64,000 bases of DNA from Vibrio sp. 05-20-BW147 (GTDB lineage: Bacteria > Pseudomonadota > Gammaproteobacteria > Enterobacterales > Vibrionaceae). A program made the translations under genes and the position numbers. The notes under the pieces are model-generated. The model did no database searches, had not been told where the DNA came from, and saw only the letters and a program-made list of their open reading frames with translations. This document shows positions 2 to 10,285 of the stretch, piece after piece (positions within the stretch are counted from its first letter, which is position 1; every line of letters starts with the position of its first letter). Where the stretch lies: assembly GCF_013369385.1 (NCBI RefSeq), contig NZ_SZTO01000010.1, forward strand, positions 186,001 to 250,000, written 5' to 3'.

Positions 2-1543
2 TTCCAAAAACTGCACTCTGAGCTGAGCGTTGGCATGAAAGAGTACGTCGATGACCAATCCAGCATATCTGTCAAAGTGATGGCAAAGAGCTATTTCGTC
101 AAACTCAAAGATGCCGAAGTAATCACCTCAGATGCACTGGCGAGTTCAGATCTAGAGTTTGTAAAAAATGCCGTCAACAAAAACAAGAAAGCGGTCACTC
201 ATCTGAATTACGCATACCGTGGTCTCACTACCCAACTGCCATCACTAAAAGATGTGTTTAATGCTTCTGTCGAGAAGTTTACGCAAGACGTGGGTCAAAA
301 AGGGGGCGTACTGGATCAACACGCCAGTTACCTTGAAGCCAAAGATGCCTTGTATGGCAACATTGCCAACCTTGCCATCAAAGTTGACTCAGCAATGCGT
401 TTGTTGGAAACCTTCACTACAACGGCAACCGACAATCTCAATACCTCTTTGGTGGAAGCGGGTGAAGTGTACGACCAAGGCTTACTCAAAGCGATTGTGA
501 TTGGCATTGCGGTGACCATTTTCGCAGCAGCTGTGGGTTATCATATTGCCCACAGTGTACGCGAGCCGTTAACGCGCATTCTTTCCACCCTTGAAGGCCT
601 TGCTGACGGTGATATGACCCAGCGTATCGATATTCGTTACAACAACGAGTTCAGTCGAGTGAGTGGACACATCAATACGTTAGCCGACAGTTTGCATAAT
701 ATCTTGGTTAAGCTTAATGATGCGGCAGAAAACCTAACCGACACCGCAGCAAACAATGAGCGCACATCTGGCGATGCACAACATCAACTCAACGTTCAAC
801 GCGAGCAGACCGCCAGCGTGGCGACAGCGATGACCGAAATGAGCCACTCCGTTCAAGAAGTGGCCCAGAGCGCACAAGGCTCACTAGAAATGGTGCAAAA
901 AGTGGAAACGGCATCTGAATCTGGCCGTACCATCATGAGCAGCAATATCTCGACCATCAATCAGCTCGAAGCTCGTCTTAACGAATCTGTTTGCGCCGTT
1001 TCTGAACTGCAACGAATGAGTGGTCAAATTGGTTCGATACTCGATGTTATTCGCAGTATCGCAGAGCAAACCAACCTACTTGCGCTCAACGCAGCGATCG
1101 AAGCGGCTCGCGCTGGTGAGCAAGGACGGGGTTTTGCTGTGGTTGCTGACGAAGTCCGTGTTTTGGCTTCTAAAACGACACAATCAACCACCGAAATCGA
1201 ATCGATGATCAGCAACTTGCAATCGAGTTCACAATCCGCAAACAGTGTCATTCAAAGCTGTATGAAGGATATGGAAATGTCGGTTGAGCAGGCGTCAAAA
1301 GCCAACGGTGCAATGGAAGAAATTCAAGCACTGATTATCGAGATCAGTCAAATGAGCACGCATATCTCTCAAGCAGCTGCAGAGCAGAGTGAAACCTCTA
1401 CTGCTATCGCTCGTAGTTTGGAAGACATCAATAACATTGCCGACCGCAGTTATCATGCGATGGCAGAAATCGCTTCTACCAGCGAGAACTTATCTAGCTT
1501 AGCAAGTCAGCAAACCGAGCTTGTTCACCGCTTCAAGTTGTAA
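2..1543 (+). CDS. Methyl-accepting chemotaxis protein (5' end outside window)
   Basis: A membrane chemoreceptor that signals to CheA/CheW. The frame is open to the window edge, so the first transmembrane segment and part of the periplasmic sensor are missing; the Met at 35 is internal. In order one sees a helical periplasmic region, a transmembrane segment (about 482-550), a HAMP linker (about 550-710) and a long coiled-coil signalling domain. The conserved hairpin tip, containing [19 protein letters not shown], lies around 1060-1120 and identifies the family. A strong terminator follows, so it is probably the last gene of its transcript. The ligand cannot be inferred. Confidence 0.95.
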
Positions 1544-1586
1544 GGTTCAACAGAAAACGGTCACTAGGCCTATAAAGTCATCGGAT

Positions 1587-1621
1587 AAGGGCAACTTTTG
1601 ACAAAGTTGCCCTTGTTTTTT
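1587..1621 (+). terminator. Rho-independent terminator of the chemoreceptor gene
   Basis: A perfect 12-bp stem (1587-1598 pairing with 1603-1614) has a TGAC loop and is followed by G and a run of six T. Confidence 0.9.
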
Positions 1622-1708
1622 ATGCGCTGTGTCTACATATGAAGATCAGGCGCTTGCACTCTCTTTCACATCCTCATTTTTTGCAAGCCGTACTGAGAAG
1701 GAAATGTT

Positions 1709-2869
1709 ATGGCTGTACACGTTGGTATCATTGATCAGGACCCTGTCAGACTGGTGACTCCTCTCCTCGATCTGCGTACCGTCAGCACTCATATCGTGTT
1801 TATCGGTGATGAGTCTCAACGCGATATGTATCAAAGACTTCATTCTGTGCTTGCTCAGCGTGATATCACTTCCGAACTGTTTGTCATCCCCTCTGTCGTC
1901 GATACTCGTTTGATCAAACAATCTATTCAGGCCTTAGCTGAAGATCTCAAAAGCCGTGGGGAAGATGTCAAACTGAACGCCAGCTGTGGCTTGCGTCATC
2001 GCCTTCTTTCTGTTTATGAGGTATTCCGCACTTACCATTGGCCAATTTTTGTGGTTGAACCAAACAGCGACAAACTGTGCTGGCTCTATCCTGATGGCCG
2101 TGAAGACACTCAAGTACAAGATCGCATTACCGTTGCTGATTATCTCACTATCTTTGGTGCGCGCGGTGAGTTCAATGAGGTCGAACTGCCACCTCAACTT
2201 GACCAAAAATTGCATGAACTCGGCGAGCGTTGGGCCAGTCACGCTTTGGAATTAGGCCCTGGTTTGGCGACTTTAAACTATCTCGCCACGACATGCCGCA
2301 AAGAGCAAAAGCTGGATGTAGAGTTATCTGAAAAGCAGCAAGGCTATCGCGAGCTGAATATGCTGCTGGCAGATTTGGTGGAAGCGCAGATCGCCACTTA
2401 CGAAAACGGCATTCTTACCTTTGCCAATGAAGACGCTCGTCGTTTCTCCAATGGCGAATGGTTAGAGACACTGGTTCACAGCACCGTCAAACAGATCCAA
2501 GATGATATGCCCACCATTCAAGACCACTCGCTCAATGTTCAGGTCTATCGTCAACTTGGCGAGCGCGAAGTGCGTAATGAGCTTGATGTCGCCTCTGTCG
2601 TTAACAATAAACTGCACATCATTGAATGTAAGACGAAGGGCATGCGTGATGACGGCGACGATACGCTTTATAAGCTTGAATCACTGCGTGATCTACTCGG
2701 TGGCCTACAAGCAAGAGCCATGTTGGTAAGCTTCCGTCCACTGCGTCACAACGATATTACCCGTGCAGAGGATCTTGGCTTAGCGCTGATCGGCCCAGAT
2801 GAATTGAAAGATTTGAAAAAGCATCTCACAGAGTGGTTTGCACAAGCGGGTGGTAGCGACGGGATCTAA
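1709..2869 (+). CDS. Stand-alone CARF-domain PD-(D/E)XK nuclease (VC1899 / Card1-Can2-like, DUF1887)
   Basis: 386 aa. The N-terminal half is Rossmann-like (CARF), the middle holds a winged-helix-like segment, and the C-terminal third is a restriction-endonuclease fold with E291-x-D293 and E306-C-K308, the PD-(D/E)XK signature. It is colinear with V. cholerae VC1899, an early structural-genomics target that became a reference CARF protein. Relatives Card1 and Can2 are nucleases switched on by cyclic oligoadenylate in type III CRISPR systems. Here no cas gene or CRISPR array is visible, and the usual CARF TGGTK-type ligand loop appears as S-C-G-L-R (residues 92-96). The start follows an AGAAGGAA ribosome site. 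A role in phage defence or nucleotide-triggered damage is inference. Confidence 0.85.
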   Translation: MAVHVGIIDQDPVRLVTPLLDLRTVSTHIVFIGDESQRDMYQRLHSVLAQRDITSELFVIPSVVDTRLIKQSIQALAEDLKSRGEDVKLNASCGLRHRLLSVYEVFRTYHWPIFVVEPNSDKLCWLYPDGREDTQVQDRITVADYLTIFGARGEFNEVELPPQLDQKLHELGERWASHALELGPGLATLNYLATTCRKEQKLDVELSEKQQGYRELNMLLADLVEAQIATYENGILTFANEDARRFSNGEWLETLVHSTVKQIQDDMPTIQDHSLNVQVYRQLGEREVRNELDVASVVNNKLHIIECKTKGMRDDGDDTLYKLESLRDLLGGLQARAMLVSFRPLRHNDITRAEDLGLALIGPDELKDLKKHLTEWFAQAGGSDGI

Positions 2870-2926
2870 TTCCCGTCTTGCTTGAAGGGGCTTAAAAGAC
2901 CAATTGCTTTTTCAACCGACAAACAA

Positions 2927-2954
2927 AAACCCCGAAGCGATCGCCTCGGGGTTT
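2927..2954. terminator. Bidirectional terminator between the CARF nuclease and udp
   Basis: A 9-bp stem (2927-2935 with 2946-2954) has a palindromic GCGATCGC interior. It has A-rich sequence on the left and T-rich on the right, so it can serve both converging genes. Confidence 0.85.
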
Positions 2955-2978
2955 CTTTATTCAATCAGTGTAATGTGA

Positions 2979-3737
2979 TTACAGCATTTTACGCGCAGAC
3001 TCGACAACCACTTTGATAGAGCGAGCTTCCGTCTCTTTTAGCGTCGCGTGATCTGGGATCTCTTTTTGTGTACGGTTGATGATTACACCCGCAACACAAC
3101 CCGCGCGTAGGCCAGAGCTTGCACACATGGTCAACAACGTCGCTGATTCCATTTCAAAGTTCAGTACGCCCATCTCCTGCCACTCTTTCATTGAGCCTTG
3201 GAAACGGCTCACTACGCGCCCAGTAAAGGTATCGTAACGCTCTTGACCTGGGTAGAAGGTATCACTTGACGCAGTAACACCGGTGTGAACTGTTGCACCA
3301 CTTTCTAATGCAGCCGCTTTCATTGCCGTTGCCACGTCAAAGTCAGCTACTGCAGGGAACTCCATTGGCGCAAAGTGCAAGCTCGCACCATCAAGACGAA
3401 CAGAACCTGTCGTGACGATCATGTCACCCACGTTAACATGCGGCTGGATCGCACCCGTGGTACCAACACGTAGGAAAGTACGCACACCCAGTTGAGCCAA
3501 CTCTTCAACCGCAATAGAAGTAGAAGGACCGCCGATACCCGTTGAACAAACAACCACTGGTTTGCCATCTAGCTCTGCACGGTACAAGGTGTACTCACGA
3601 TGGCTAGCTAGAAATACTGGGTTTTCCATTTCTTCAGCAATTTTTTGTACACGCGCAGGATCACCTGGGATGATCGCTAGCGTTGCACCGTTAAGATCTG
3701 CTTCAGTAACACCTAAGTGGAAAACAGCTTGAGACAT
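2979..3737 (-). CDS. udp: Uridine phosphorylase
   Basis: 252 aa, full length for the family. It reversibly cleaves uridine with phosphate to uracil and ribose-1-phosphate in pyrimidine salvage, as a cytoplasmic hexamer. Family motifs are visible: GDPARV near the N terminus (phosphate binding), [11 protein letters not shown] in the middle, and FEMESATLL near the C terminus, whose Glu-Met-Glu contacts the ribose. A good ribosome site (AAGGAGTGA) precedes the start. The upstream region holds a CRP-like site and CytR-like half-sites, matching the nucleoside-catabolism control known for E. coli udp. It is a single gene between terminators. Confidence 0.96.
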
Positions 3738-3985: not shown

Positions 3986-6301
3986 CTAGTATTCATTTGA
4001 GGAACGGAATCGTAACAATCGCAATGCGTTTAGTGTGACCAATGCCGTTGCGCCACTGTCCGCTAATACCGCCACCCATAGCCCGGTGATGCCAAGCAAG
4101 CTGGTGACAAGAAACACCCCTTTTAGACCCAATGACAAGGCGACATTTTGACGGATGATGCTCATTGTTGCGCGTGAGAGCTCTATCATGCTTGGCAACT
4201 CAACCAAGCGATTATGCGTAAGCGCAGCATCCGCCGTTTCAAGGGCGACGTCGGTTCCTCCGCCCATGGCGATACCAATACTCGCCGCTTTCATGGCAGG
4301 CGCATCGTTGATGCCATCTCCAACCATGGCAACGGTTTTGCTTGCGGCAAACTGCTCCACATAGTGCACTTTGTCTGCTGGCAATAAGCTCGCTTGGTAA
4401 TCAATGCCAATCTGCTGAGCGATGGCTTGAGCACTGCGAGGGTTATCACCTGTCAACATCACCGCAGAAACGCCCAGTTTACCTAGCGCAACCACCGCTT
4501 TAGCTGCGTCTTTGCGCAATGTGTCTTGCCATGCGATGAGCCCGATGGCTTCACTATCATGACGCACAATCACCACGGTTTTCCCTTGCCCTTCTAAGCG
4601 GACAATTTCTCTTTCTAATTGCAAGGAGAGTGGAAATTGGGCTCGTGAAGGGGCCACCAGCTCCACGCTTTTACCATCGACGAAACCGGAAACGCCCGCC
4701 CCGACTTGAGCCATTTTGTCCGTTGCTTCCGCAATGGCGTAACCCAAACTCTCGGTGTGATTAATCAGCGCAACCGCTAAAGGGTGACTCGAACCCACTT
4801 CCACCGCTGCGCTCAAACTCAACAAGGTTTCATCGTCATAGAGGAATGACACCACATCTGTCACTTGCGGTTTGCCTTGTGTAAGTGTGCCGGTTTTATC
4901 AAAGGCAACCGCTTCGACTTTACCAAGCTGTTCTAACGCCGCGCCACCTTTGATCAAGGCGCCACGTTTGGCTGCCGCAGCAAGGCCAGAAGTAATTGCT
5001 GCCGGCGTTGAGATCACCAAAGCACAAGGACAAGCAATCAGTAGCAAAGCCAAACCGCGATACACCCACGTTTCCCAAGGCTGGGCGAAGAACATTGGCG
5101 GTACGACGATCACGGCCAACGACACCAACATCATTAATGGTGTGTACCAACGGCTGAATTTGTCTAAGAAACGCTCCAGTGGTGCTTTGCGCGATTCCGC
5201 CTCTTCGATGAGATGCAAAATACGATCTATCGCATTTTCACCTTGTTTTGAGGTGACTTCGATGCGCACGACTTTATCGACAGCCACCACACCCGCCATC
5301 AGCTTCGCGCCAGAGGTATGCTCTGCGGGCACCGATTCTCCCGTCAACGCACTTTCATCAAAACTGGCCGTTGGCGTAAGAAGCAAGCCATCCGCAGGCA
5401 AACGAGAACCGGGCGCAATTTCAACCACATCACCTGGCATCAACTCACTTGCCGCCACTTCTACTCGTTGACCATCGACAATTTTAATGCTGTTTTCCGG
5501 CACTAAGGCCATTAACGCTTGAACGCCACTTCTTGCTCTTGAGGCAGCGTACGCTTCCAATTTCTCACCAATTAAAAACAGCAGTAAAACCATGGCCGCT
5601 TCCACGCTTTCACCAAGATAAAGCGCACCAATGGCCGCCACGCTCATCAGCGTCTCAATGGCGAAAGGGGTTCCGCTGCGAGCAAGGCGCACGGCTTTTT
5701 TCGCCACAGGGTATAAACCCGCTAAACAGGTTAGAACAAATAAGCCATTACTTAACGCTTCGGAAACCGTCGCCAATAGAGCGGCGATAGCCATAGAAAA
5801 GGCTATGGCTAAAATGTGCCAGTTGGCGTAAACAAAACCGAGCCAACCTTGAGGTTGAGGCGCCGCAGTTGCCTTCGCTGCCGATGAACCAACGAGCGTA
5901 ATTGGAAAACCTGTTTTTGCCGCGACTTGTTCAATCTCTGCCATTAATGACGCAGAAGCGAAATCCACCACCAACTTCTCGGTGGCAAACAACACTTTCG
6001 CCTGCTGAACTCCGGCCACACCCAAGACGGCTTTTTCCAATTTCTGAGCGCAAGACGGGCAATCCATACCGGAGATGAGCCAACTTTGTCGCTCCGACGC
6101 GCTTTGAGCTAAGGGTGCCTCTCGCCGCTCACTCTCTTCATTCGGATCTGAGCTTGAGCACGCATCTGAGCTGCAGCAACTGTCTGCTACCGATGAAATT
6201 GCGGTCATTTTGCTAGCGGCTAAGCTCGGGCTGCAGCACGATACCGCAGTAGGTTTGGCAATGATTTTATTTGACTGACAAGCAGTATGTTTTGAGCACA
6301 T
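3986..6301 (-). CDS. zntA: Zn(II)/Cd(II)/Pb(II)-translocating P-type ATPase
   Basis: 771 aa P1B-type ATPase that exports soft divalent metals across the inner membrane. The cytoplasmic N terminus is rich in Cys (C2, C8, C22-23, C42-43, C48) and leads to a heavy-metal-associated domain with GMDCPSCA (C81, C84). Further on are the transmembrane CPC motif (CPCALVIS), the phosphorylation loop DKTGTLT, the TGDN motif and GDGINDAP. The frame could begin at 6382, but I place the start at 6301: it has an AAGGAAA ribosome site, and the MerR-type promoter at 6332-6363 lies between the two candidates, so a start at 6382 would precede the transcript. No zntR gene is in the window. Confidence 0.93.
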   Translation of the reverse strand: MCSKHTACQSNKIIAKPTAVSCCSPSLAASKMTAISSVADSCCSSDACSSSDPNEESERREAPLAQSASERQSWLISGMDCPSCAQKLEKAVLGVAGVQQAKVLFATEKLVVDFASASLMAEIEQVAAKTGFPITLVGSSAAKATAAPQPQGWLGFVYANWHILAIAFSMAIAALLATVSEALSNGLFVLTCLAGLYPVAKKAVRLARSGTPFAIETLMSVAAIGALYLGESVEAAMVLLLFLIGEKLEAYAASRARSGVQALMALVPENSIKIVDGQRVEVAASELMPGDVVEIAPGSRLPADGLLLTPTASFDESALTGESVPAEHTSGAKLMAGVVAVDKVVRIEVTSKQGENAIDRILHLIEEAESRKAPLERFLDKFSRWYTPLMMLVSLAVIVVPPMFFAQPWETWVYRGLALLLIACPCALVISTPAAITSGLAAAAKRGALIKGGAALEQLGKVEAVAFDKTGTLTQGKPQVTDVVSFLYDDETLLSLSAAVEVGSSHPLAVALINHTESLGYAIAEATDKMAQVGAGVSGFVDGKSVELVAPSRAQFPLSLQLEREIVRLEGQGKTVVIVRHDSEAIGLIAWQDTLRKDAAKAVVALGKLGVSAVMLTGDNPRSAQAIAQQIGIDYQASLLPADKVHYVEQFAASKTVAMVGDGINDAPAMKAASIGIAMGGGTDVALETADAALTHNRLVELPSMIELSRATMSIIRQNVALSLGLKGVFLVTSLLGITGLWVAVLADSGATALVTLNALRLLRFRSSNEY

Positions 6302-6331
6302 AACATTTTCCTTATTGGTGAGTACAGCGTA

Positions 6332-6363
6332 AGCATAAACCTTAGAGTCAGCTCCAAGGTCAA
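6332..6363 (-). promoter_or_regulatory. MerR-family (ZntR-type) promoter and operator of zntA
   Basis: On the minus strand, TTGACC (-35) and TATGCT (-10) are separated by an over-long 20-bp spacer filled by the dyad ACCTTGGAG...CTCTAAGGT (operator 6339-6360). This is the classic architecture that a metal-bound MerR activator untwists. It sits about 30 bp upstream of the zntA start chosen here. Confidence 0.88.
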
Positions 6364-6401
6364 GCGTTATTTCACTCGGCAAGGAATCGGCTATAAAAGT
6401 A

Positions 6402-6419
6402 AGCCCTCGTTAGAGGGCT
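6402..6419 (-). terminator. Terminator hairpin after the CBS-domain gene
   Basis: A perfect 7-bp stem AGCCCTC/GAGGGCT has a 4-nt loop. On the minus strand it is followed by TTACTTTTA, just downstream of the CBS gene stop. Confidence 0.65.
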
Positions 6420-6436
6420 CATCATAAGGAGGAAGG

Positions 6437-6853
6437 TTAAACCGGATGCTTGAAGCAATCATCGAGACTTTGGCCAATCGCTTTTAACACATCGCGACGG
6501 GTGATCACCCCGACCAATTTTTTGTTGTCGACCACCGGGTACATTTTCGGTTTGCCGACTTTCATCATGTCGGCCAGTTCGATGATCGACATATCAGACG
6601 AAACCGATAACACATCACTGTGCATGCACTCACCAACGGTATACGAATCTTGGCAGTGATAACTGGCTTTCACCAGTTTATCCAGCAAGTCTTGCTCTGA
6701 AAGGAAACCTATCACTTCTTCTTTTTCATTGATCACCGGACCACCCATGACCACGCTTTTCATGACTTTGTTCAATGCGGCACTTAAAGACATGTCAACT
6801 GTGAAGGTGACGGCTTGTAGGGTCATGTAATCTTTTACTTTGAGTGAATTCAT
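6437..6853 (-). CDS. CBS-domain-pair protein
   Basis: 138 aa made up almost entirely of two CBS domains (about 1-65 and 70-130), with the signatures VTFTVDMSLSAAL, GFLSEQDLL and GVITRRDVL. Such stand-alone Bateman modules bind adenosyl nucleotides and usually regulate a partner protein. No enzyme domain is fused. The ribosome site is reasonable (AAGGAGCACGCG ahead of the start). It is convergent with nothing and separated from zntA by a terminator, so it is probably transcribed alone. The partner is unknown. Confidence 0.85.
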   Translation of the reverse strand: MNSLKVKDYMTLQAVTFTVDMSLSAALNKVMKSVVMGGPVINEKEEVIGFLSEQDLLDKLVKASYHCQDSYTVGECMHSDVLSVSSDMSIIELADMMKVGKPKMYPVVDNKKLVGVITRRDVLKAIGQSLDDCFKHPV

Positions 6854-7068
6854 CGCGTGCTCCTTGGCGGTGTCATTTTGCCCTTTCTTTAAGTGTCGTC
6901 TAATTTCTTGTTTTTACTAAATTGGAATCAGCAATTTTATCTATTGTCCCTACCAATCAAGCGATTCTGATCACCCGTTTCAAAAATAAGACACTGAATT
7001 ACGTCTCCGTTGCCCCCAACTTTACGTTATTAAGCTATATGTTAATTAACATGGTAGGAGTCGTCTGC

Positions 7069-8037
7069 ATGGTAGAACAATCTATTTTCTCTCGAGTTAT
7101 CGCTAATAACCCATCGGTTGTGCATCACATTTTTGAGGCGCTACCTGAACCTACTTTTTTGATTAATGCCGAGGGTTACTATATCGAAGCATGGGGCGGT
7201 ACCGACAGTAAGCGACACCATGACCCAGCCAATCTCATCGGCTTGAATCAATACCAGGTGTTGCCGAGCGATAAAGCCAGGTGGTTCTCCGACGTGATTC
7301 AACAGGTCATCCAATCGCAAAGGCCTCAAGAGTTGGAATATGAGCTCCATCCAAAAGATCTTAGTTGTTTTGACGGTGTCGAAGGGCCGACTGAGTTGCA
7401 ATTTTTCAGCGCATTCGTCATTCCTCTCTTGGGCGAAAACAAAGTCCTTTGGACAGTGCGCAACATCACTGAATACAAAACAGCCCTGCAACGATTAGAG
7501 TCTCAACAACTCGAACTGGAACGCCTCTCATGCCTCGACCACCTCACTCAACTCTTCAATCGTTACGCGCTAGAGATCCATCTTCCCCATGCCCTATCAA
7601 AGGCTGCCCAGTCTGGCCACAGTGCCGCGCTGTTTATGGTTGATATTGATTGTTTTAAAGATCTCAACGACACCTTTGGCCATTTAACTGGCGACAAAGC
7701 GTTGAGAATGGTTGCCATGACACTCAAACAGTGGAGTGGTGAGCAGGGTATCGGCTTTCGTTATGGCGGCGATGAATTCCTTATATTTATCCAAGACATC
7801 TCAAAACAAGCATGCGAAGAGAAAGCAAGCGCGTTGCAAGCGTCCATCGCTCGGTTAGCCATTGCCAATCCACATTCGCAAGTATCCAAGATTCTCACCG
7901 TCACCATCGGCATTCAGTTTTACCCCAGCCTAACGAGCGACAGCCAAGATCTCGAACAGTTTATTTCCAAAGCGGATAAAGCGCTGTTTAACGCCAAAAA
8001 CACCCAACGTGGCACCGTTCACTTTCTCTCTCATTAA
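7069..8037 (+). CDS. Diguanylate cyclase with N-terminal PAS-like domain
   Basis: 322 aa soluble protein predicted to make cyclic di-GMP. A PAS-like sensor (about 15-125) leads through a short coil into a GGDEF domain (about 155-322) with an intact GGDEF at 233-237 and the upstream D-I-D-x-F-K motif for metal binding. The RxxD inhibitory site normally found five residues before GGDEF is not present (S-G-E-Q instead), so product inhibition may be weak. The open frame begins at 6922, but the start at 7069 has a TAGGAG ribosome site and removes an implausible leader. The signal sensed by the PAS domain is unknown. Confidence 0.88.
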   Translation: MVEQSIFSRVIANNPSVVHHIFEALPEPTFLINAEGYYIEAWGGTDSKRHHDPANLIGLNQYQVLPSDKARWFSDVIQQVIQSQRPQELEYELHPKDLSCFDGVEGPTELQFFSAFVIPLLGENKVLWTVRNITEYKTALQRLESQQLELERLSCLDHLTQLFNRYALEIHLPHALSKAAQSGHSAALFMVDIDCFKDLNDTFGHLTGDKALRMVAMTLKQWSGEQGIGFRYGGDEFLIFIQDISKQACEEKASALQASIARLAIANPHSQVSKILTVTIGIQFYPSLTSDSQDLEQFISKADKALFNAKNTQRGTVHFLSH

Positions 8038-8055
8038 TCGCTGGGATCTTCCGTG

Positions 8056-8088
8056 CAAAAAAAGAGAGCCATTTGTTTGGCTCTCTTT
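8056..8088 (-). terminator. Terminator of cadA
   Basis: A perfect 11-bp stem (8061-8071 with 8078-8088) is followed on the minus strand by seven T. The plus-strand side has little T-run, so it mainly serves cadA, though it may also stop the diguanylate cyclase transcript. Confidence 0.88.
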
Positions 8089-8149
8089 GGGTCACGCGTC
8101 TATTGGGGTAGTCACGTTGCGTTAAATCATTGACCTGATTTCAGGCAAA

Positions 8150-10285
8150 TCAGTCTTTCAGTACTTTTACGGTGTAACGGCCATCTTTTTGGCGGTATAG
8201 GCCGTGGATGTCGGTCTCGAAGCCTGGGTAATGCGCGCCGATTTCACACAACATTTCCAAGAAATCCAGTACTGGACGAGAGCTTTCTGTCACCACTTCA
8301 CCTGGTAGCACTAGAGGCACACCTGGAGGGTAAGGAAGGATCATGTTGGCACTGACACGGCCCACCATATCATTCAGCAAGATCTCTTCGGTTTGACCAC
8401 GAAGCTCTTGTTGCCAAGCTGCGTGTGGCGTGACTTTCATCTCTGGTAGCACATCGAACGCTTTGTACATCAATTCTGGTAGACGGTACTTACGAGTCAG
8501 ATCGTGAATGCCTTGTGCCAGCTCTTGAATACGCATGCCTTCGTAGAACGCTGGATCTTCACGGTACAGCGCAGGCAGCATGGTGCGAATCGTTAGGTTC
8601 AGATCGTAACCACGTTTGAACTCAGTCAAACCACGTAGCAATTGCATTGCTTTTGATTTATCGATACCAATTGAGAACAAGAACAACAAGTTGTAAGGGC
8701 CTGTTTTCTCTACCACAATGCCACGTTCATCAAGGTATTTCGCCACCAATGAAGCAGGAATACCACTGGTTTCCAATTCACCATCTTTGCTCATTCCAGG
8801 AGTCAGCAAGGTGATTTTGATTGGGTCAAGATACATGTGGTCATCGTCCATGTTCTTGAAGCCATGCCAGTCTTGGTTAGGGTCAAGTTTCCAGCATTCG
8901 GTTGTCTCAATATTCTCTGGTTGCCAAACATCGAAGAACCAACCGTCACTTTCACCTTTTAAGCGTTTGATCTCTTTACGGAAACGAATCGCACGATCGA
9001 TTGAATCTTGCATCAACTTACGACCCGTGTTGCCACGCATCATTGCCGCCGCGGTTTCTGTTGATGCCACAATGCCGTATTGAGGCGAGGTGGAGGTGTG
9101 CATCATAAAGGCTTCGTTGAACGACTCACGGTCAAATTCACCTTTTACGTGAATCATTGACGCTTGCGAGAACGCCGCCAACAGTTTGTGAGTGGACTGT
9201 GTTTCGTAGAACACTTTGCCTGGCATCGCTTCGCCACTCATGCCGCATTTGCCTTCGTAAATACGGTTGAAGTTAGTGTAAGGCACCCACGCACTATCAA
9301 AGTGGATGTGTTTACAGTCGAGAGACTCTTTGATGAATTGTGTGTTGTACAACAAACCATCGTAAGTTGAGTTGGTGATTACTGCATAGCTTGGCGCGCT
9401 CGCACCTGGTGTTTTAGCGACTTTCTCAGCAATCACTTCACGGCTGAATTCACTTTGTGGAATACCACCAAGAATGCCGTAAGCGTTACGGGTTGGACGG
9501 AAGTAAATGGGTGTTACGTCCGTCATCATCATTAGGTGAGTCAATGATTTATGACAGTTACGGTCAACCAATACCGTGCTGCCCGCTGGCGCTGAGAACA
9601 TACCGACAATTTTGTTTGATGTCGAAGTACCGTTCGTCACGATGTACGATGCGTCAGCGTTGAACGTACGCGCAATGTACTCTTCCGCTTCTTTGTGTGG
9701 ACCTGAATGGTCAAGCAGTGAGCCTAGCTCTGGCATCGAAATCGACACGTCCGCTTTGAAAGTATTTGGACCGTAGAAATCGTAGAAAATGCTGCCGACT
9801 GGGCTTTTTTGAAAAGCCGTACCACCCATGTGACCTGGAGTACAGAAGGTGTATTTGCCTTCTTCCACGTATTTAAACAGCGCTTTGGTGAATGGCGGTG
9901 TAATTGCGTCTTTGTATTCTTGTGTCGCTTGGTTGATCTTGATGGCGATGTCGTCCGCCATGCCCAATGCGTATTCAAAGAAATGCACGTTTAGGCGTAG
10001 ATCGGTAAGCGAAATATCCAGCGTTGATTGCTCGTTAGCAAACGCGTGTACTGGCAGTTTTTCGTTGATTTGGCTAATACGCTCACAAAGCTCAAGCGAG
10101 TATTTATCCCAGTCAAACAGCACACCACAAATGCGTGGGTTCATTTCGATCATCTTGATCAAATCTTTGTCATCCACTGGATAAACAACTTCATAACCGG
10201 CTTTTTCAAGTGCTGCATGCAATTGACGAACTGGCTCTTCTTTAAAGAACACACCCATGTGGTTCAAGATAGCGAAAATATTCAT
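8150..10285 (-). CDS. cadA: Lysine decarboxylase, inducible
   Basis: 711 aa, the usual length. This PLP enzyme converts lysine to cadaverine and CO2, consuming a proton, in acid stress. The N-terminal 'wing' domain (about 1-130) is followed by the PLP fold with the S-T-H-K lysine motif near residue 367 (in ETQSTHKLLAAFSQ), the HFDSAW aspartate that contacts PLP nitrogen, and the C-terminal ornithine-decarboxylase domain. It lies 113 bp downstream of cadB on the same strand, forming the antiporter-decarboxylase pair, and is followed by a strong terminator. The start has a TTGGAGATGTCC ribosome site. Confidence 0.97.
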   Translation of the reverse strand: MNIFAILNHMGVFFKEEPVRQLHAALEKAGYEVVYPVDDKDLIKMIEMNPRICGVLFDWDKYSLELCERISQINEKLPVHAFANEQSTLDISLTDLRLNVHFFEYALGMADDIAIKINQATQEYKDAITPPFTKALFKYVEEGKYTFCTPGHMGGTAFQKSPVGSIFYDFYGPNTFKADVSISMPELGSLLDHSGPHKEAEEYIARTFNADASYIVTNGTSTSNKIVGMFSAPAGSTVLVDRNCHKSLTHLMMMTDVTPIYFRPTRNAYGILGGIPQSEFSREVIAEKVAKTPGASAPSYAVITNSTYDGLLYNTQFIKESLDCKHIHFDSAWVPYTNFNRIYEGKCGMSGEAMPGKVFYETQSTHKLLAAFSQASMIHVKGEFDRESFNEAFMMHTSTSPQYGIVASTETAAAMMRGNTGRKLMQDSIDRAIRFRKEIKRLKGESDGWFFDVWQPENIETTECWKLDPNQDWHGFKNMDDDHMYLDPIKITLLTPGMSKDGELETSGIPASLVAKYLDERGIVVEKTGPYNLLFLFSIGIDKSKAMQLLRGLTEFKRGYDLNLTIRTMLPALYREDPAFYEGMRIQELAQGIHDLTRKYRLPELMYKAFDVLPEMKVTPHAAWQQELRGQTEEILLNDMVGRVSANMILPYPPGVPLVLPGEVVTESSRPVLDFLEMLCEIGAHYPGFETDIHGLYRQKDGRYTVKVLKD

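What the first reader, a model, noticed from the sequence alone, without database searches (positions are those of the whole stretch)
1709..2869. CARF nuclease outside any CRISPR context with an altered ligand motif
The protein has the CARF plus PD-(D/E)XK layout of Card1/Can2 (E291, D293, E306, K308 present), yet no cas genes or arrays lie in the window and it sits between a chemoreceptor and udp as in V. cholerae (VC1899). The CARF loop, usually TGGTK-like, reads S-C-G-L-R at 92-96. It may respond to a different cyclic nucleotide or be a vertically inherited stress nuclease.
Basis: partly seen in the sequence, partly recalled or inferred. Interest (0 to 1): 0.74.

Follow-up and report, generated by a model that had tools for sequence, protein, structure and literature searches.

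The report
CRISPR-independent nuclease conserved across Vibrionaceae
A DNA/RNA-cutting enzyme related to CRISPR immune effectors is kept by nearly all members of the Vibrio family even though most lack that type of CRISPR, and its signal-binding pocket is altered but tightly conserved, which suggests that it works with a different, still unknown signal.

Summary
The ORF at 1709-2869 is real: the orthologue of Vibrio cholerae VC1899 (PDB 1xmx), a CARF + PD-(D/E)XK protein with all named catalytic residues and the SCGLR loop. That VC1899 is an orphan, is not activated by cA4 and lacks the cA4 pocket is already in print (PMC7969007), read there as possibly 'degenerate'. My data argue against degeneration. 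The gene is in 290 of 296 genomes of the family; RAMP (type III CRISPR) proteins are in only 19 of 296, none in this genome. In 133 distinct family proteins E291, D293, E306, K308 and pocket residues D9, D11, R14, R96 are invariant; median dN/dS is 0.02, about as low as for udp. The sampled orthologues form one clade (100/100) apart from CRISPR-linked copies in the same family. The nearest relative found outside, 39% identical, sits among type III-D CRISPR genes. Most likely it is a CRISPR-type effector domesticated in the Vibrionaceae ancestor as a nuclease gated by another ligand; ligand and substrate are unknown. A covarying inverted repeat, probably a leader hairpin, precedes the start codon in many Vibrio loci.

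The parts
1709..2869 (+). VC1899 orthologue: orphan CARF + PD-(D/E)XK nuclease gene, 386 aa
   Evidence: AF2 model pLDDT 90.9 matches 1xmx Z 51.9, rmsd 1.1 over 378 residues
1709..2158 (+). CARF domain (about residues 1-150)
   Evidence: PF23400 match 25-145, below its cut-off; structural matches over about residues 1-130 to CARF domains of Csm6, Cad1 and ring nucleases
1733..1750 (+). Pocket motif D9-Q10-D11-P12-V13-R14; D9, D11, R14 are 133 of 133
   Evidence: pocket positions named in PMC7969007
1976..2008 (+). Loop N90-A-S92-C-G-L-R96-H-R-L-L100, in place of the TGGTK-like loop of Can2
2426..2848 (+). PD-(D/E)XK nuclease domain (residues 240-380)
   Evidence: PF09002 240-379, 1.9e-64; median dN/dS 0.0065
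2576..2587 (+). Active-site residues N290-E291-L292-D293
   Evidence: E291 and D293 133 of 133; equivalent to Can2 E276/D278 (PMC7969007)
2624..2638 (+). Active-site residues E306-C-K308-T-K310
   Evidence: E306, C307, K308, T309 133 of 133
1650..1689 (+). Inverted repeat GCTTGCA ... TGCAAGC, probably a 5' leader RNA hairpin (arms 1652-1658 and 1682-1688) just before the ribosome-binding site
   Evidence: covariation in 7 of 8 pairs on 46 selected rows; no energy excess in this one sequence
1589..1620 (+). Terminator-like inverted repeat plus T run after the chemoreceptor gene, so the nuclease gene is probably transcribed alone
   Evidence: sequence, similar block in most rows with the chemoreceptor upstream in the alignment; the pattern scan did not call it
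35..1543 (+). Methyl-accepting chemotaxis protein gene (the protein may start upstream of the window)
   Evidence: PF00015 5.5e-42; directly upstream in 75 of 80 named Vibrio loci
2979..3737 (-). udp-type nucleoside phosphorylase gene, convergent
   Evidence: PF01048 4.9e-42; downstream in 14 of 20 loci of other genera of the family, one of them partial, and 28 of 80 named Vibrio loci

Best explanation
It is the VC1899-type protein, a core, vertically inherited gene of the Vibrionaceae. Shown here: near-universal presence, largely fixed neighbours, one clade, strong purifying selection, invariant catalytic residues, an invariant but non-Can2 pocket, and independence of type III CRISPR. Inferred from family knowledge: it is a homodimer whose two CARF domains form one pocket; binding of a small ligand there closes the two nuclease domains on DNA or RNA, as in Can2/Card1. 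Inferred with less certainty: the ligand is not cA4 but a molecule of the cell itself, recognised through D9/D11/R14 and the NASCGLRH loop (a guanine-containing or metal-bridged nucleotide, or an RNA end, would suit such residues), and the protein descends from a type III CRISPR effector domesticated in the ancestor of the family.
For: 290 of 296 family genomes carry it. Outside the family only 11 hits in the 394-genome order draw and 22 in the 370-genome class draw besides this genome. RAMP proteins in 19 of 296 family genomes, own genome 0; none of the six genomes without the gene is among those 19, so 271 of 277 RAMP-free genomes carry it. 133 of 133 distinct family proteins keep E291, D293, E306, K308, D9, D11, R14, S92, G94, R96. 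dN/dS median 0.0196 over 176 unsaturated pairs, nuclease domain 0.0065, udp 0.0235 over 831 pairs. Published CARF pocket positions are more conserved than random CARF positions (mean entropy 0.32 vs 0.94, p 0.013). The sampled orthologues are one clade, 100/100, joined at 100/99 by six relatives with NAS[TNC]G or NTTTG loops. Genomes that also hold CRISPR-type copies (G197, G264, G098, G013, G112) keep a core copy with D9, D11, R14 and NASCGLRH. The nearest relative found outside lies among type III-D genes.
Against: No ligand, substrate or phenotype is known. Published assays found no cA4 activation, no plasmid nicking and only weak RNase activity of VC1899 (PMC7969007); an invariant pocket could be kept for folding or dimerisation. 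D9 plus an acidic residue 11 also occur in two type III-D-linked proteins (L089 D9/E11, L111 D9/D11), so they are not a private mark of the orphan clade. Two of nine CARF pocket positions (10 and 34) vary (115 and 85 of 133). Two of 135 distinct proteins are pseudogene-like pieces (L081, L086), and 6 of 296 genomes lack the gene, so it is dispensable in some species.
Confidence: 0.6

Rival explanations
1. A maintained nuclease of ordinary DNA/RNA metabolism in which the CARF domain only dimerises or places the nuclease; the pocket binds nothing that matters.
For: The nuclease domain is the most constrained part (median dN/dS 0.0065 vs 0.024 for CARF). The published protein showed weak RNase activity not regulated by cA4 (PMC7969007).
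Against: Pocket residues D9, D11, R14, R96 are invariant while the CARF domain as a whole varies, which is hard to explain without a ligand or a structural metal.
Confidence: 0.2
2. The CARF pocket has become a metal site or catalytic site (the invariant D9-x-D11 with H97 could hold Mg/Mn), so the protein acts on its nucleotide rather than only sensing it.
For: D-x-D at the end of strand 1 is invariant, 133 of 133; acidic residues argue against a bare anionic ligand (PMC7969007).
Against: No structural or biochemical support was found; the related SthCan2 and Can1 are reported to lack ring-nuclease activity (PMC7969007, passage).
Confidence: 0.1
3. A degenerate defence enzyme cast adrift from CRISPR, without present function (the published suggestion for VC1899).
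For: Loss of the cA4 contacts and very low activity in vitro (PMC7969007); two pseudogene-like copies among 135 distinct proteins.
Against: 290 of 296 genomes, median dN/dS 0.02, catalytic residues invariant in 133 of 133.
Confidence: 0.05
4. Still a type III CRISPR effector acting in trans with a Cas10 elsewhere in the genome.
For: The protein scores in CARF4 and Csx1 models of CRISPR-linked proteins and 19 of 296 genomes do have RAMP proteins.
Against: No Cas10, RAMP or Cas1 match in this genome; 271 of 277 RAMP-free genomes keep the gene; several genomes with type III genes carry separate CRISPR-type copies. A Cas10 unlike the models used could be missed: the III-D genome G264 was not found by the Cmr2 and Csm1 models.
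Confidence: 0.03

Closest known systems
VC1899 of Vibrio cholerae (PDB 1xmx; DUF1887/PF09002)
   Same: Orthologue: phmmer 4.3e-219, model Z 51.9, rmsd 1.1, 84% identity; same loop and active site in the alignment
   Different: Nothing of weight seen; this is the same gene in another Vibrio
Can2 / Card1 (CRISPR ancillary nucleases, type III)
   Same: Same two-domain layout and fold (7bdv Z 35.5, 6xl1 Z 28.0); same catalytic E-x-D ... E-x-K
   Different: No CRISPR locus; pocket mostly S-x-Q-P-x-P-N / N-[AV]-T-G-G-T-K / Y in cas-linked relatives is here D-x-D-P-x-R-L / N-A-S-C-G-L-R-H / V; VC1899 not activated by cA4 in print
VC1899-like protein among type III-D genes (L089, genome G384)
   Same: Nearest relative found outside the family, 39%; NASTG loop, D9 and an acidic residue 11
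   Different: Lies beside Cas6, Cas7_IIId, Csx19 and a CARF-TM protein; no Cas10 seen in the 12 kb held
Cdn1 (CARF-domain dual-activated nuclease, 9u49/8z4i)
   Same: Same fold (Z 32.2) and nuclease-domain sequence match
   Different: CRISPR-associated and cA_n-activated according to title and abstract start (listing)

Membership tests
Can2/Card1 superfamily (CARF + PD-(D/E)XK, DUF1887) | CARF domain plus Card1-type endonuclease domain in one chain | tested here: met
   PF09002 1.9e-64 (CARF model slightly below its cut-off); PADLOC CARF4--CARF_PDDEXK 1.4e-147; fold match
Can2/Card1 superfamily (CARF + PD-(D/E)XK, DUF1887) | Catalytic E-x-D ... E-x-K | tested here: met
   E291, D293, E306, K308, 133 of 133 distinct family proteins
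[quoted passage not shown]
   Own genome: Cmr2 0, Csm1 0, RAMPs 0, Cas1 0; window has no exact array and no match to 20 cas-locus queries
CRISPR ancillary effector (Can2 sensu stricto) | cA4-contacting pocket residues (Can2 Ser19, Thr42, Lys99, Tyr118) | tested here: not met
   Here D9, D34, R96, V115 (correspondence from PMC7969007); positions 9, 96 and 115 differ between 33 clade rows and most of 18 cas-linked rows
CRISPR ancillary effector (Can2 sensu stricto) | Activation of the nuclease by cA4 | not testable with these tools
   Published as absent for VC1899 (PMC7969007, passages)
VC1899 orthologue group of Vibrionaceae | Belongs to the single orthologue clade with NASCG loop and DxDPxRL | tested here: met
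   Clade of 33 rows, 100/100, in a 65-row tree; motifs
CBASS effector | A CD-NTase gene in the genome or beside it | tested here: inconclusive
   SMODS PF18144 0 in own genome; other CD-NTase-like families were not searched

The most novel reading that the evidence does not exclude
A CRISPR type III-like effector was domesticated in the ancestor of the Vibrionaceae into a housekeeping nuclease with a new pocket specificity, so that nearly every Vibrio has an undescribed ligand-gated nuclease pathway whose signal is made by a core cellular enzyme and not by Cas10, and whose expression is set by its own leader hairpin.
Probability: 0.4. Interest if true: 0.8.

Novelty: new variant of a known kind. 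Interest (0 to 1): 0.55.

Why it matters
VC1899 was one of the first CARF proteins with a solved structure (so PMC7969007), yet its function is unknown and the published guess is that it is a relic. Family-wide presence, fixed pocket and fixed active site turn it into a maintained protein with a definable missing ligand. If a CARF domain senses something other than a Cas10 product in a whole bacterial family, this would be a clear case of domestication of a CRISPR effector and a new nucleotide or RNA-end signal in Vibrio. It also gives the residues to test (D9, D11, R14, R96, H97).

Tried and rejected
PF22335 (Cas10 palm) hits in the own genome: all four ORFs carry GGDEF-type motifs read by eye, rejected as Cas10. 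Mobile origin: 0 matches in the phage collection, one weak plasmid match (Aeromonas, 31%, half the protein), none in viral contigs with the L090 protein (the window protein itself was not used there). NCBIfam gave no relevant family. Rfam: three matches with E up to 1 in 1500-3000, all far below their gathering scores and none in the leader. Leader hairpin by folding energy: z 0.66, no excess, so that claim rests on covariation alone. A regulon sharing the inverted repeat: in four genomes the pattern is rare; the single place in G263 and in G197 and one of two in G268 lie at this gene; in the own genome three places, none at this gene, whose repeat is interrupted. V. cholerae-type synteny with udp: not found in V. 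mimicus and V. metoecus. The Cmr2 and Csm1 models miss the type III-D genome G264, so their counts are lower bounds; RAMPs were used instead. Guanine or metal-bridged ligand is inference only, untested. Makarova 2020 (PMC7498327) is not held; it may discuss orphan CARF4 proteins. No missing fold-library match is used as evidence.

Limits: the 133 proteins and 128 leader regions are a sample biased to the nearest Vibrio and include one second copy (L088); identical proteins were collapsed on their last 340 residues. The 46 rows of the hairpin count were picked by me from leaders with the repeat, which inflates pairing (slide control). Only 176 of 8,778 protein pairs had unsaturated dS, pairs are not independent, and the udp figure comes from 61 loci and other pairs. 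The cas-neighbour test used 20 query proteins only, and flanks of most unnamed family loci were 1.5 kb.

Full report
1. The observation. The ORF 1709-2869 encodes 386 aa. Pfam gives PF09002 (Card1 endonuclease) at 1.9e-64 and the Card1 CARF model just under its cut-off; PADLOC gives CARF4--CARF_PDDEXK at 1.4e-147. The best solved relative is VC1899 of V. cholerae, 1xmx (4.3e-219), then Can2 7bdv (3.7e-27). An AlphaFold model from an 11-row alignment (pLDDT 90.9) matches 1xmx with Z 51.9, rmsd 1.1 over 378 residues, Can2 7bdv with Z 35.5, Cdn1 9u49 with 32.2 and Card1 6xl1 with 28.0. The window has no CRISPR-like exact array and no match to the cas-locus queries among 152 ORFs.

2. What is already in print. 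I read passages of the Can2 paper (PMC7969007): VC1899 is called an orphan CARF protein, it was not activated by cA4, did not nick plasmid and had weak RNase activity; its pocket residues (Asp9, Gln10, Asp11, Arg14, Asp34, Leu95, Arg96, Val115, Pro118, Gln334) were judged unfit for cA4, and it was suggested to be a degenerate defence enzyme 'cast adrift'. Passages of PMC6981274, PMC4012209, PMC1462988, PMC8211822 and PMC3974666 mention VC1899; PMC4012209 notes that some members of the family are not linked to CRISPR and that one lies in a cluster with Ter genes. Two further papers that name VC1899 (PMC3599296, PMC3137634) were seen only in the listing. Searches for VC1899, DUF1887, 1XMX, CARF with Vibrio or Vibrionaceae, orphan CARF, CARF with c-di-GMP, and VC1898/VC1899 listed no family-wide conservation study by title or abstract start, but no paper was read whole and Makarova 2020 is not held.

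3. Distribution. The protein was found in 290 of 296 genomes of the window's family at E <= 1e-10, in 12 of 13 genera. The six misses are G165, G188, G189, G002, G003 and G021; four of them have genomes of 1.0 to 2.6 Mb. In the order draw 47 of 394 genomes hit (E <= 1e-5), 36 of the hits in the same family and 11 outside it; in the class draw 23 of 370 hit (E <= 1e-10, profile), this genome included. A scan of named genome contigs confirmed 441 relatives; the best 80 kept are all titled Vibrio, Vibrionales or Vibrionaceae. No phage record matched and one plasmid weakly.

4. No CRISPR partner. In this genome: Cmr2 none, Csm1 none, RAMPs none, Cas1 none, SMODS none; four PF22335 hits are GGDEF-type proteins. 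In the family draw, Cmr2 was matched in 10 of 296 (7 over the cut-off), Csm1 in 19 of 296 (0 over the cut-off), RAMPs in 19 of 296 (all over the cut-off). The six genomes without the nuclease are not among the 19, so 271 of the 277 RAMP-free genomes carry it (derived, same handles). The Cas10 models miss some type III-D systems, as G264 shows.

5. Vertical inheritance. In a 65-row tree the 33 rows of the family's core type (31 main or duplicate loci chosen from 169, plus the second copies L107 and L108) form one clade with support 100/100; it joins at 100/99 a group of six relatives with NAS[TNC]G or NTTTG loops (L089-L093, L110) (loops). Additional copies in family genomes that lie by cas genes (L111, L112, L114, L115, L116) fall elsewhere in the tree. 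The tree warns of long branches for L087, L093, L099 and others. Of 25 complete relatives outside the family whose surroundings were fetched, 13 have a cas match nearby (two of these loci supplied the queries). The chemoreceptor gene is directly upstream in 75 of 80 named Vibrio loci; in other genera udp, not the chemoreceptor, is the usual neighbour (udp 14 of 20, one partial; chemoreceptor 0 of 20). No cas match appeared in the 80 named loci with up to 8 kb flanks nor in the family's unnamed main loci, most with 1.5 kb flanks.

6. Selection. From 169 family loci I kept 135 distinct proteins and dropped two short ones (L081, L086, pseudogene-like pieces). In the remaining 133 (one of them the second copy L088), G249, W251, E253, N290, E291, D293, E306, C307, K308, T309 are 133 of 133; D9, D11, R14, R96, N90, A91, S92, G94 133 of 133; C93, H97, V115, Q334 132; P118 131; L95 128; but Q10 115 and D34 only 85. 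The nine CARF pocket positions named in print have mean entropy 0.32 against 0.94 for the CARF domain (one-sided permutation p 0.013); the tenth, Q334, lies in the nuclease domain. dN/dS by Nei-Gojobori, pairs with 0.1<dS<1.5: median 0.0196 (176 pairs); CARF 0.024, nuclease 0.0065; udp 0.0235 (831 pairs from 61 loci). This is not how a degenerate gene evolves.

7. The pocket is different, not broken. Against 18 cas-linked homologues, the 33 clade members have D9 33 (cas-linked S 13 of 18), D11 33 (Q 12, N 4), R14 33 (P 14), S92 33 (T 14), C93 33 (G 13), L95 29 (T 11), R96 33 (K 13), V115 32 (Y 13, W 4), while E291, D293, E306, K308 are the same in all 51. Two III-D-linked proteins share the acidic pair or nearly so: L089 (D9, E11) and L111 (D9, D11). 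So acidic residues there need not exclude a Cas10-made ligand, and an origin near type III-D effectors is plausible.

8. Mechanism, marked. Shown: maintained, CRISPR-independent, conserved pocket and active site. From family knowledge: CARF dimer binds a ligand, the nuclease domains close on nucleic acid. Inferred: another ligand. D9/D11/R14/R96/H97 would suit guanine recognition or a metal-bridged nucleotide; this is a guess to be tested.

9. Leader element. Upstream of the start codon many Vibrio loci have GGCTTGC, a loop of variable length, GCAAGCC ending about 17 nt before ATG. A stem score of 17 or more, counting any stem in the leader, is found in 109 of 128 distinct leaders against 118 of 640 mononucleotide-shuffled ones. 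A core of six pairs near this position is fully paired in 96 of 128; choosing the best pairing biases this; loci of other genera mostly lack it. On 46 rows that I selected, 92.3% of cells pair, 7 of 8 pairs show changes on both sides, 0 of 500 shuffles reach these values, and slid registers give 20-43%. Rfam has no match there, and the single-sequence energy is not unusual. It is likely an RNA hairpin; function unknown.

10. Verdict. What the present calls add is strong evidence that the gene is not a relic.

Noticed in passing
window 1650-1689; upstream regions of many Vibrio orthologues: Covarying inverted repeat (probable leader RNA hairpin) between a TATATG-like block and the ribosome-binding site, with a loop of about 17 to 75 nt.
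   Followed up: partly
L107 (G282 contig 2) and L108 (G294 contig 9): Second VC1899-clade copies (57-59% identity) beside type VI secretion (VasE) and TerD/TelA genes (L107 by Pfam; L108 by similar ORFs), which recalls the Ter-cluster link noted in PMC4012209.
   Followed up: partly
L089 (G384), 5269-6411: Nearest relative of VC1899 found outside the family lies among type III-D CRISPR genes (Cas6, Cas7_IIId, Csx19, a CARF-TM protein); a possible link between CRISPR effectors and the orphan clade.
   Followed up: partly
L111 (G112), 5623-6765: CARF nuclease near Cas10 and Cas7_IIId genes with D9-x-D11 but an NVTQGN loop.
   Followed up: no
L112 (G197), 7238-10087: 949-aa reverse transcriptase-Cas1 fusion with an N-terminal extension near a CARF nuclease.
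   Followed up: no
L081 (G057) and L086 (G016): Pseudogene-like copies of the orthologue (in-frame stops or split frames).
   Followed up: no
L117 (G001), 5491-7046: In the 2.6 Mb genome G001 the divergent orthologue (40%) lies beside a gene that resembles by eye the CBS-domain gene at window 6437-6853.
   Followed up: no
L096 and L097 (G364, G429): Can2-like CARF nucleases with NSNGGTK loops near genes that look like small GTPases by eye, without cas matches in 9-12 kb.
   Followed up: no
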